Below are positions 6,256 through 25,815 of a DNA stretch of 64,000 nucleotides, piece after piece. How positions within the stretch are numbered: position 1 is the first letter of the stretch; the number at the start of each line of letters is the position of its first letter. Source of the stretch: Acidobacteriota bacterium (GTDB lineage: Bacteria > Acidobacteriota > Terriglobia > Terriglobales > Acidobacteriaceae); assembly GCA_016196065.1 (NCBI GenBank), contig JACPYL010000010.1, positions 620,001 through 684,000 of the forward strand, read 5' to 3'. Both the position numbers and the translations under genes were made by a program. Under the pieces are notes generated by a model, which searched no databases, was not told where the DNA came from, and was given only the letters and a program-made list of their open reading frames with translations.

Positions 6256-6268
6256 AAATTCAAAAGCC

Positions 6269-6296
6269 GCGGGCGAGGGCGCCCGCGCCACACAAT
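6269..6296. repeat. GCGGGCG palindromic repeat next to the ahcY stop codon
   Basis: GCGGGCG at 6269-6275 pairs with CGCCCGC at 6280-6286, followed by GCCACACAAT. The repeat ends directly at the ahcY stop codon. A near-identical copy is inside kdsD at 25064-25090. Confidence 0.75.
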
Positions 6297-7691
<1,395 letters not shown>

Positions 7692-24535: not shown

Positions 24536-24538
24536 ATT

Positions 24539-24636
24539 CAGGTGTCAGGTCTTAGGTGTCAGGTGTTAGGAAGACCCGAACTTGCGCCGCCATATTAGGG
24601 TCTTCCTAACACCTGACACCTAAGACCTGACACCTG
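24539..24636. repeat. Perfect 39-bp inverted repeat between the channel gene and kdsD
   Basis: The left arm 24539-24577 and right arm 24598-24636 are exact reverse complements, with a 20-base loop. Each arm is itself built from CAGGTGTCAGG-like repeats, so the unit looks internally repetitive. The hairpin begins 3 bases after the channel stop codon and ends 34 bases before kdsD. It has no T tract; it may stabilise or separate the transcripts. Confidence 0.9.
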
Positions 24637-24670
24637 ATTCACCTCAATAACTGCTAACATTCTTTCTTCC

Positions 24671-25684
24671 ATGAAACACGTTGGCGAAAATGTGGTGCGG
24701 ATTGAAGCGGATGCGCTGCGGGCGCTGGCGGACCGGCTTGCCGGCCCGATGGCGGCGGAGTTTCTGCGCGCGGTCGATCTGATGTTTCATTGCCAGGGAC
24801 GAGTCGTCGTAACCGGTATGGGGAAGAGCGGAATCATCGCGCGCAAGATTGCTGCAACGCTGAATTCGACAGGATCGCCCGCGATGTATCTGCATCCGGT
24901 CGAAGCACTGCACGGGGATCTGGGAATGGTGGTGCGCGGCGACGTCGTGCTGGCTTTGTCGGCAAGCGGCGAGACGGAAGAAATTCTTCGGCTGCTTGCG
25001 ACGATTAAACGGCTGCAGGTCCCGTTGATCAGCATGACTTGCGATGAGATTGTTGAGAAGGCAGCGGGCGGGGGCGCCCGCTCCACACAATCATCTGCAT
25101 CGACGCTGGCGGAGGCGGCGGAAGTTGCGCTGGATTGCTCGATCTCAAAAGAAGCCTGTTCGCTGGGGCTGGCGCCTACGGCTTCGACTACGACCATGTT
25201 GGCATTGGGGGATGCGCTGGCGGTTGCGCTTTCTGAAAAACGCGGCTTCAAGGAAGAAGATTTCGCCAACCTCCATCCGGGCGGGAAGTTGGGGAAACGG
25301 CTGGCGCGAGTGGAGTCGTTGATGCACTCGGGCGATGCTCTTCCTCGCGTTCTGGCGACAACCATGATGACCGATGTGATCTATGAAATGTCGCGCAAGA
25401 AACTCGGCGTCACTACGGTGATGGATGGTGACACGCTTCTGGGCTTGATCAGCGACGGTGATTTGCGGCGGTTGCTGGAGCGTCGCGGCAAAGATGCGCT
25501 CGACCTGGCTGCACAAGACTGTATGAACCGGAGTCCGAAGACGATTGATCCGCAGGAATTTGCGGCGACGGCCTTGGCGCGGATGGAGGAGATGAAGATC
25601 ACGTCGCTGGTGGTAGTGGACGTCGATCACCGCGTTCGCGGCATTGTGCATCTGCATGATTTGTGGGGAACGGAGATGGTGTAG
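24671..25684 (+). CDS. kdsD: Arabinose-5-phosphate isomerase
   Basis: A 337-residue enzyme making arabinose 5-phosphate from ribulose 5-phosphate for KdsA. The SIS domain (~30-170) contains VTGMGKSGIIARKIAATLNS, LSASGETEEI and the EACSLGLAPTASTTTMLALGDALA block; two CBS domains follow (~205-265 and ~275-335), ending with the usual HDLW. Compared with the enzyme as I know it, a loop after the SIS strand holds extra Gly/Ala/Ser-rich residues (AAGGGARSTQSSAS). That loop is encoded by a copy of an intergenic repeat. The ATG at 24671 starts the normal N terminus. Confidence 0.95.
   Translation: MKHVGENVVRIEADALRALADRLAGPMAAEFLRAVDLMFHCQGRVVVTGMGKSGIIARKIAATLNSTGSPAMYLHPVEALHGDLGMVVRGDVVLALSASGETEEILRLLATIKRLQVPLISMTCDEIVEKAAGGGARSTQSSASTLAEAAEVALDCSISKEACSLGLAPTASTTTMLALGDALAVALSEKRGFKEEDFANLHPGGKLGKRLARVESLMHSGDALPRVLATTMMTDVIYEMSRKKLGVTTVMDGDTLLGLISDGDLRRLLERRGKDALDLAAQDCMNRSPKTIDPQEFAATALARMEEMKITSLVVVDVDHRVRGIVHLHDLWGTEMV
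25064..25090 (+). repeat. Copy of the GCGGGCG palindromic repeat inside kdsD
   Basis: GCGGGCG (25064-25070) and CGCCCGC (25075-25081) with the tail TCCACACAATC match the repeat that follows ahcY at 6269-6296. It is in frame and encodes the surface-loop residues of KdsD near the SIS core. Confidence 0.7.
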
Positions 25685-25731: not shown

Positions 25732-25815
25732 ACTGTCATCCCGAGCGAAGCGAGGGATCTGCAGTTTCTTCGGGCACCCAGACTGCGGATCCCTCGCTCC
25801 GCTCGGGATGACAGT
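25732..25815. repeat. Long GGATGACA-type hairpin with 33-base arms
   Basis: The left arm 25732-25764 and right arm 25783-25815 are nearly perfect reverse complements (one or two mismatches), with an 18-base loop. The cores are CCCGAGCGAAGCGAGGGAT and its complement. It lies between kdsD and the GNAT gene and ends 17 bases before the latter. Confidence 0.9.

What the first reader, a model, noticed from the sequence alone, without database searches (positions are those of the whole stretch)
25060..25092. Intergenic repeat inside the kdsD coding sequence
The GCGGGCG...CGCCCGC...CCACACAATC element following ahcY occurs in frame in kdsD, encoding a Gly/Ala/Ser loop that I believe is absent in other KdsD proteins. 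This suggests that the element spreads and can enter genes when length and frame are harmless.
Basis: partly seen in the sequence, partly recalled or inferred. Interest (0 to 1): 0.6.

Follow-up and report, generated by a model that had tools for sequence, protein, structure and literature searches.

The report
Mobile palindromic repeat inside kdsD gene
A short self-complementary DNA repeat that is scattered around this soil bacterium's genome also sits, in frame, inside the gene for a sugar-phosphate isomerase and other everyday enzymes, and related species carry different versions of it at the same spot, so what looks like a mobile repeat has become part of working proteins.

Summary
A 24-bp hairpin element (8-bp stem with the base before it, 4-nt loop, CCACA tail) lies at 25064-25087 in frame in kdsD and again 4 bp past ahcY (6269-6292). 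The genome (nearest named relatives: Terriglobia, Acidobacteriota) holds 41 copies and none of the reversed pattern. At least 12 of 41 lie inside genes named by family models (kdsD, valS twice, mnmE, trmFO, moeA, metH, rnr, anmK, a pcrA-like helicase and two others), in all three forward frames and on the opposite strand. The KdsD loop is a 16-residue insertion against solved homologues and is absent in 20 of 20 order- and class-level relatives. It is not unique to this genome: 17 of 21 same-genus genomes carry the element there, in several stem types that switch at least 8 times on a quick kdsD tree. Fuller forms are inverted hairpin pairs with CCACA tails outward, as in REP doublets (REPINs). 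No transposase could be tied to it. Best reading: a REP/REPIN-like non-autonomous element that entered kdsD in an ancestor and persists as a tolerated loop. In-gene REPs and Rickettsia palindromic elements are known, so this is a new variant of a known kind.

The parts
24671..25684 (+). kdsD, arabinose-5-phosphate isomerase (KpsF/GutQ family), 337 aa, host gene of the intragenic copy
25063..25087 (+). In-frame hairpin element (looks like the right half of a REP doublet): stem arms 25063-25070 and 25075-25082, loop 25071-25074, tail CCACA 25083-25087; core 25064-25087 encodes KdsD residues 132-139
   Evidence: outer base pair is Watson-Crick in 39 of 41 own copies
6268..6292 (+). Second window copy, 4 bp beyond the ahcY stop codon: arms 6268-6275 and 6280-6287, loop 6276-6279, tail CCACA 6288-6292
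6297..7571 (-). ahcY, adenosylhomocysteinase

Best explanation
The sequence in kdsD is one hairpin of a REP-doublet-like (REPIN-like) mobile element. Shown here: the element is a dispersed 24-bp hairpin with a CCACA (sometimes CTACA) tail; a fuller form exists as two such hairpins in inverted orientation, tails outward, around a short spacer; copies occur between genes and in frame inside conserved genes; and in kdsD it starts at the same base (nt 393 of the aligned gene) in 13 of the 14 orthologues that have a clean in-frame copy. Inferred: the kdsD site was occupied in an ancestor of most of the genus, and this genome keeps only the right hairpin of a former doublet. The insertion survives because it adds whole codons without a stop in a KdsD loop that tolerates length change. 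Also inferred: spread through a single-strand intermediate handled in trans by a Y1 (IS200-like) transposase, as proposed for REPINs; and change of stem type at a fixed coding site by a DNA-level process (re-insertion into a freed site, or conversion from another copy) and not by selection on the protein.
For: 41 dispersed copies, 0 in control. Outer stem pair is Watson-Crick in 39 of 41 own copies and 32 of 32 GGACA-type copies; shuffles reach at most 27 and 21. Inverted tail-out partner within 200 bp upstream in 10 of 41 and 6 of 32 copies (up to 4 mismatches), 0 downstream. Doublets in frame in kdsD (L291, L297, L306, L316, L340), mnmE of this genome and moeA (13 of 22 same-genus loci by eye, some decayed). 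Sites without it: kdsD loop of 5 residues in 20 of 20 more distant relatives; moeA of G005; valS second site in the other 25 of 26 loci (one has Ns there, four have other inserts); trmFO in L220, L221, L222, L224. Within kdsD pairs of one type, silent-site identity in the element is 0.93, above all 297 other 8-codon windows (max 0.85), while the seven residues just before it are 40% identical. Loop control: 0 of 110 reversed loops match.
Against: No transposase is linked to it: 0 of 6 Y1 (PF01797) genes of this genome and 2 of 34 Y1 loci examined (of 113 matches in the genus) have a copy within about 1.5 kb, none on both sides. 31 of 41 own copies lack a recognisable partner. In anmK and metH the element adds little or no length against the best solved homologue, so insertion as opposed to replacement is not shown there. 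Silent sites of the element are also similar between types (0.83; 2 of 297 windows as high), so part of the excess may reflect GC-rich codons. The kdsD tree is a quick tree with 37 of 84 inner branches drawn open (support under 80). The type in kdsD is not clearly predicted by the genome's commoner type (Mann-Whitney p = 0.16, 14 genomes). No gain or loss within a species was tested.
Confidence: 0.8

Rival explanations
1. The hairpin is kept inside genes because it works there as an RNA or DNA structure (for example a pause, cleavage or protein-binding site), and its stem drifts by compensatory changes in place through G-T (G-U) intermediates.
For: Stem pairing is kept while sequence changes: 25 of 28 typed kdsD copies have both variable stem pairs Watson-Crick and the other 3 (L275, L285, L289) have a G-T pair. 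Intermediate stems occur in trmFO. Silent sites are unusually conserved.
Against: Orthologues without it are found in the same genus (kdsD G019 and G022; trmFO L220, L221, L222, L224; valS second site in 25 of 26 loci). It lies in either orientation and several frames in unrelated genes. The stem types are also those of the dispersed copies.
Confidence: 0.12
2. The AGGGARST loop is a KdsD-specific functional loop selected at the protein level.
For: The loop insert is present in most of the genus (17 of 21).
Against: Residues differ between element types (AGGGARST against ADKSVRAT; amino-acid identity 0.46 between types against 0.89 for the gene). Loop length by alignment ranges from about 4 to 65 residues over 110 loci and is 5 in 20 of 20 more distant relatives. 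The same DNA encodes RAGAPAPH, GRGRPRH and CGAGAPAR in other genes.
Confidence: 0.04
3. Chance convergence of GC-rich coding DNA on a palindrome.
For: The element is GC-rich and stop-free in six frames, as 85% of 108 sampled GC-rich genomic 24-mers are.
Against: 0 in 100 shuffles of the window; 0 reversed-pattern matches against 41 places.
Confidence: 0.01

Closest known systems
REPINs / REP doublets (PMC3116915; passages read)
   Same: Short palindromes, inverted pairs with a spacer, dispersed copies, mostly outside genes; single copies read there as remnants of doublets.
   Different: No RAYT gene flanked by the element was found; singles outnumber pairs; a sizeable share lies in frame in conserved genes; the tag is TGTGG or TGTAG.
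Intragenic GTAG and CGTC REPs (PMC3733652; passages read)
   Same: REPs inside ORFs encoding extra amino acids, as singles or doublets; stem variants by complementary changes; tag-out doublets.
   Different: No family of this kind from Terriglobia appeared in the passages read (Koribacter is named there for transposases flanked by terminal inverted repeats). In the passages read, occupied genes are listed; here orthologous sites are compared across species and change type in place.
Rickettsia palindromic elements (known here through passages of review PMC10969869; the original papers were not read)
   Same: Palindromic repeats inserted in frame in unrelated protein genes.
   Different: RPEs are about 150 bp and from Rickettsia; this core is 24 bp (or a doublet), read in several frames, in bacteria whose named relatives are metagenome-assembled genomes, many from soil and peat.
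Class 3 TnpA-Y1-linked structures of Solibacter usitatus (PMC6006769; passages read)
   Same: High-copy DNA secondary structures in an acidobacterium, described as reminiscent of REP sequences.
   Different: They have a CnGA foot and flank class 3 Y1 genes; this element has a TGTRG tag and flanks no Y1 gene examined. Not compared by sequence.

Membership tests
REP/REPIN | Short (20-40 bp) palindrome in many copies | tested here: met
   24-25 bp hairpin, 41 copies in own genome; second type 3-134 copies in 22 of 23 other same-genus genomes
REP/REPIN | Inverted doublets with short spacer | tested here: met
   Tail-out partner in 10 of 41 and 6 of 32 copies, 0 in downstream control; the remaining copies are single
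REP/REPIN | GTAG tetranucleotide at one end | tested here: inconclusive
   The own-genome pattern demanded CCACA (TGTGG). A relaxed pattern in 0.8 Mb gave 12 TGTGG and 1 TGTAG. Relatives show both
REP/REPIN | Mainly extragenic | tested here: met
   12 of 41 (a minimum) in genes against about 86% ORF cover
REP/REPIN | Associated RAYT gene flanked by the repeat | tested here: not met
   0 of 6 own Y1 genes; 2 of 34 Y1 loci with one nearby copy, none flanked on both sides; 34 of 113 genus matches examined
REP/REPIN | Mobility observed | not testable with these tools
   No strain series or reads; only unoccupied orthologous sites
Rickettsia palindromic element | In-frame insertion in unrelated genes | tested here: met
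   12 places in 11 genes
Rickettsia palindromic element | About 150 bp unit encoding a conserved peptide | tested here: not met
   24 bp core; three forward frames and the reverse strand used

The most novel reading that the evidence does not exclude
Palindromic elements inside coding sequences of this class are kept uniform with the dispersed copies by an active DNA process (excision and re-insertion at the freed site, or single-strand conversion). The residues of a loop in a sugar-phosphate isomerase, and in MoeA and TrmFO, would then be rewritten in concert with a mobile DNA population and not by selection on the protein.
Probability: 0.25. Interest if true: 0.75.

Novelty: new variant of a known kind. 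Interest (0 to 1): 0.55.

Why it matters
It gives a clear case of palindromic repeats shaping working proteins outside Rickettsia, with many species holding the same coding site empty, half-occupied, fully occupied or occupied by another insert. That makes the open question of how REPs spread, and how their copies stay alike, testable by comparing orthologous coding sites, where insertion length and frame are constrained and the flanks can be aligned.

Tried and rejected
Chance and low complexity: rejected. RAYT linkage: looked for and not found. A separate GTAG-tagged REP family GTAGAGACG...: present in this genome (20 matches in 0.8 Mb) but found near only 1 of 34 Y1 loci. kdsD type against the genome's commoner type: direction as expected, not significant (14 genomes with a GGGCG or GGACA type, the others left out). 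Nested-loop composite as a fourth dispersed type: 9 exact copies in 5 of 24 genomes, left as a probable nested insertion. Structure of KdsD: model poor (mean pLDDT 65.5, pTM 0.44; residues 123-172 under 50), so it shows only that the element follows a predicted strand at 119-122. (CTACA form in own genome) used a pattern one base too long and says nothing.

Full report
What is there. The 24-bp core GCGGGCGnGGGCGCCCGCnCCACA occurs twice in the window, in kdsD (25064-25087) and just past the ahcY stop (6269-6292); 100 shuffles of the window never give it. In kdsD it is in frame and encodes residues 132-139. The protein belongs to the KpsF/GutQ sugar-phosphate isomerase family, and the region is a 16-residue insertion against the two best solved homologues, 5uqi and 2xhz. 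In 20 of 20 KdsD-like genes from the same order or class (other families) the loop is 5 residues, against 20 here, and no match to either half of the element lies in or near it (best 7 mismatches).

The element. The whole genome has 41 places with the pattern (42 rows, one place listed twice) and none for the reversed pattern. The base before the core pairs with core position 19 in 39 of 41 copies (C-G 23, G-C 9, A-T 7), and in 32 of 32 copies of a second type (GGACA stem) found in relatives; shuffling partners gives 17.6 and 10.8 on average. So the stem has 8 pairs and the outer pair varies with compensation. Beyond the stem and CCACA no position is strictly conserved. Ten of 41 own copies and 6 of 32 second-type copies have an inverted partner within 200 bp on the stem side, against 0 on the tail side, at up to 4 mismatches (at 5 mismatches the second type gives 8 against 2): a fuller form is a doublet with tails outward. 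Some flanks and spacers hold arrays of A- and C-rich hexamers; by a strict rule 2 of 41 and 6 of 32 copies.

Copies in genes. Of the 41 copies at least 12 are inside genes named by NCBIfam models: kdsD, anmK, metH, mnmE, valS (two), a caprolactamase/hydantoinase-like gene, an MBL-fold hydrolase, rnr, trmFO, moeA and a pcrA/uvrD-like helicase. The other 29 were judged only from the ORF list (output partly cut), so 12 is a minimum. Several best hits are below the model's curated cut-off (hydantoinase-like, MBL, metH, moeA and helicase among them; some loci are cut), so names are by best family. Phases of the first core base are 0 (kdsD, valS second), 1 (anmK, valS first, hydantoinase-like) and 2 (MBL, rnr, trmFO, moeA, helicase), and metH and mnmE hold it on the other strand. 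The core has no stop in any of six frames, as have 33% of genomic 24-mers and 85% of 108 GC-rich ones; the CTACA form has one stop frame. ORFs of 120 aa or more cover about 86% of a 0.8-Mb sample by a simple greedy rule, so genes are avoided overall (12 of 41).

Insertion shown by comparison. valS second site: the element is in this genome and in none of the 25 other loci aligned; one of these has Ns there and four (L149, L152, L156, L159) hold other inserts. moeA: 13 of 22 same-genus loci carry both halves in frame by eye, some decayed; G005 (L185) has TTCGGTTCGTGTGGCAAGAAATAC where others have the doublet after TGTGGC; this genome has only the right half. trmFO: 9 of 19 same-genus loci carry a clear or lightly decayed copy by eye; L220, L221, L222 and L224 have a short loop without it; the rest are decayed or hold other sequence. 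mnmE: of 30 loci 17 could be parsed; this genome and L345 have both halves, L358 and L361 the left half, and 13 no strict match, several of these with other inserts. rnr and the hydantoinase-like gene hold it in stretches missing from solved homologues; anmK and metH show little or no length gain and the MBL gene a few residues. The helicase was not checked this way.

kdsD across species. In 21 same-genus genomes with a readable loop, 16 have the hairpin (one decayed, 4 mismatches), one has it with another palindrome nested in its loop (G003), two have an unrelated insert (G014, G009) and two have none (G022, G019). In 13 of the 14 with a clean in-frame copy it begins at nt 393 of the aligned gene. 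Over 110 loci (87 unique) from two searches, 38 of 87 carry it in some form: 28 right half, 5 doublets, 3 left half, 2 nested; one further left-half call (L071, 4 mismatches) was not counted; 0 of 110 reversed loops match. Two of the translations (L337, L340) contain stops and two loops (L325, L342) are cut or very short. On a quick tree without the loop, presence needs at least 20 changes and type (GGGCG, GGACA, GGGCA) at least 8 among 28 typed rows; in doublets the first hairpin that matched was typed. This genome (GGGCG) groups with L264 (GGACA) and L269 (another insert), next to L276 (GGGCA) and L066 (GGACA). The tree is weakly resolved in places and the counts were not set against shuffled labels, so they are rough.

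DNA, not protein. Between 30 same-type pairs the silent (third) positions of the element are 0.93 identical, above all 297 other windows of the gene (max 0.85), while the seven residues before it are 40% identical. Between 48 pairs of different type the silent identity is 0.83 (2 of 297 windows as high) and the element's amino-acid identity 0.46 against 0.89 for the gene. Pairs are not independent, and GC-rich codons may add to the excess. The pattern suggests that the DNA word is the unit.

Distribution. The GGGCG type is in 36 of 61 genomes searched, 23 of 24 in the genus; two order-level relatives had one reversed-control match each. The GGACA type is in 27 of 61, all in the same family, with 0 in this genome and 3 to 134 copies in 22 of the 23 other same-genus genomes. 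The type in kdsD did not follow the genome's commoner type clearly (p = 0.16).

Mobilisation. Six Y1 transposase genes are in this genome and 113 matches in 24 genus genomes. Of 34 Y1 loci examined with up to about 1.5 kb of flank, two have one copy nearby and none is flanked on both sides. So membership in RAYT-linked REPs is not met, though the anatomy is REPIN-like. Passages of PMC3116915 describe singles as remnants of doublets, which would fit kdsD here.

Literature. Passages read: PMC3733652, PMC6006769, PMC3116915, PMC10969869, PMC3174227 (says that short repeats abound in Solibacter Ellin6076, its 'palindromic repeats' being CRISPRs). Searches for Acidobacteria, Koribacter, Solibacter or Sulfotelmatobacter with palindromic or REP terms and for intragenic REPs or Rickettsia elements showed no title or abstract start about this family, but several of these lists were capped at 10 to 15 rows, and supplementary files could not be read.

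Verdict. A confirmed case of a REP/REPIN-like element living in frame inside housekeeping genes, with change of type at one coding site. Kind known, variant new, enzyme unknown, movement not observed.

Noticed in passing
window 25737-25813: Just after the kdsD stop lies an inverted pair (CTGTCATCCCGAGCG... / ...CGCTCGGGATGACAG) of another repeat family; its 27-bp unit gave a top word count of 7 in a 0.8-Mb sample.
   Followed up: no
window 24538-24640: Between the preceding ORF and kdsD lies an inverted repeat built from CAGGTGTCAGGTCTTAGGTGTCAGGTGTTAGG-like units.
   Followed up: no
L053, L308, L191, L195: A second palindrome (CCTTCGACT..GCTCAGGGCAGG, inverted in L195) is nested in the loop of the hairpin in kdsD or moeA of different species, again in frame; 9 exact copies of the junction in 5 of 24 genus genomes.
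   Followed up: partly
L056, L063, L073, L074, L285, L311, L320, L327, L335, L339: The same KdsD loop holds inserts that look like other repeats in other species, so the loop may be a general landing place for small repeats (judged by eye).
   Followed up: partly
own genome, 0.8-Mb sample (L076-L115): A GTAG-tagged REP family (GTAGAGACGnGGC..GCCnCGTCTC) with 20 matches.
   Followed up: no
L012, L031, L037, L121, L142, L305: A- and C-rich hexamer arrays (AACNNC or AAARTC-like) run up to the stem in some copies, and in L305 are translated as SKSKSK inside KdsD.
   Followed up: no
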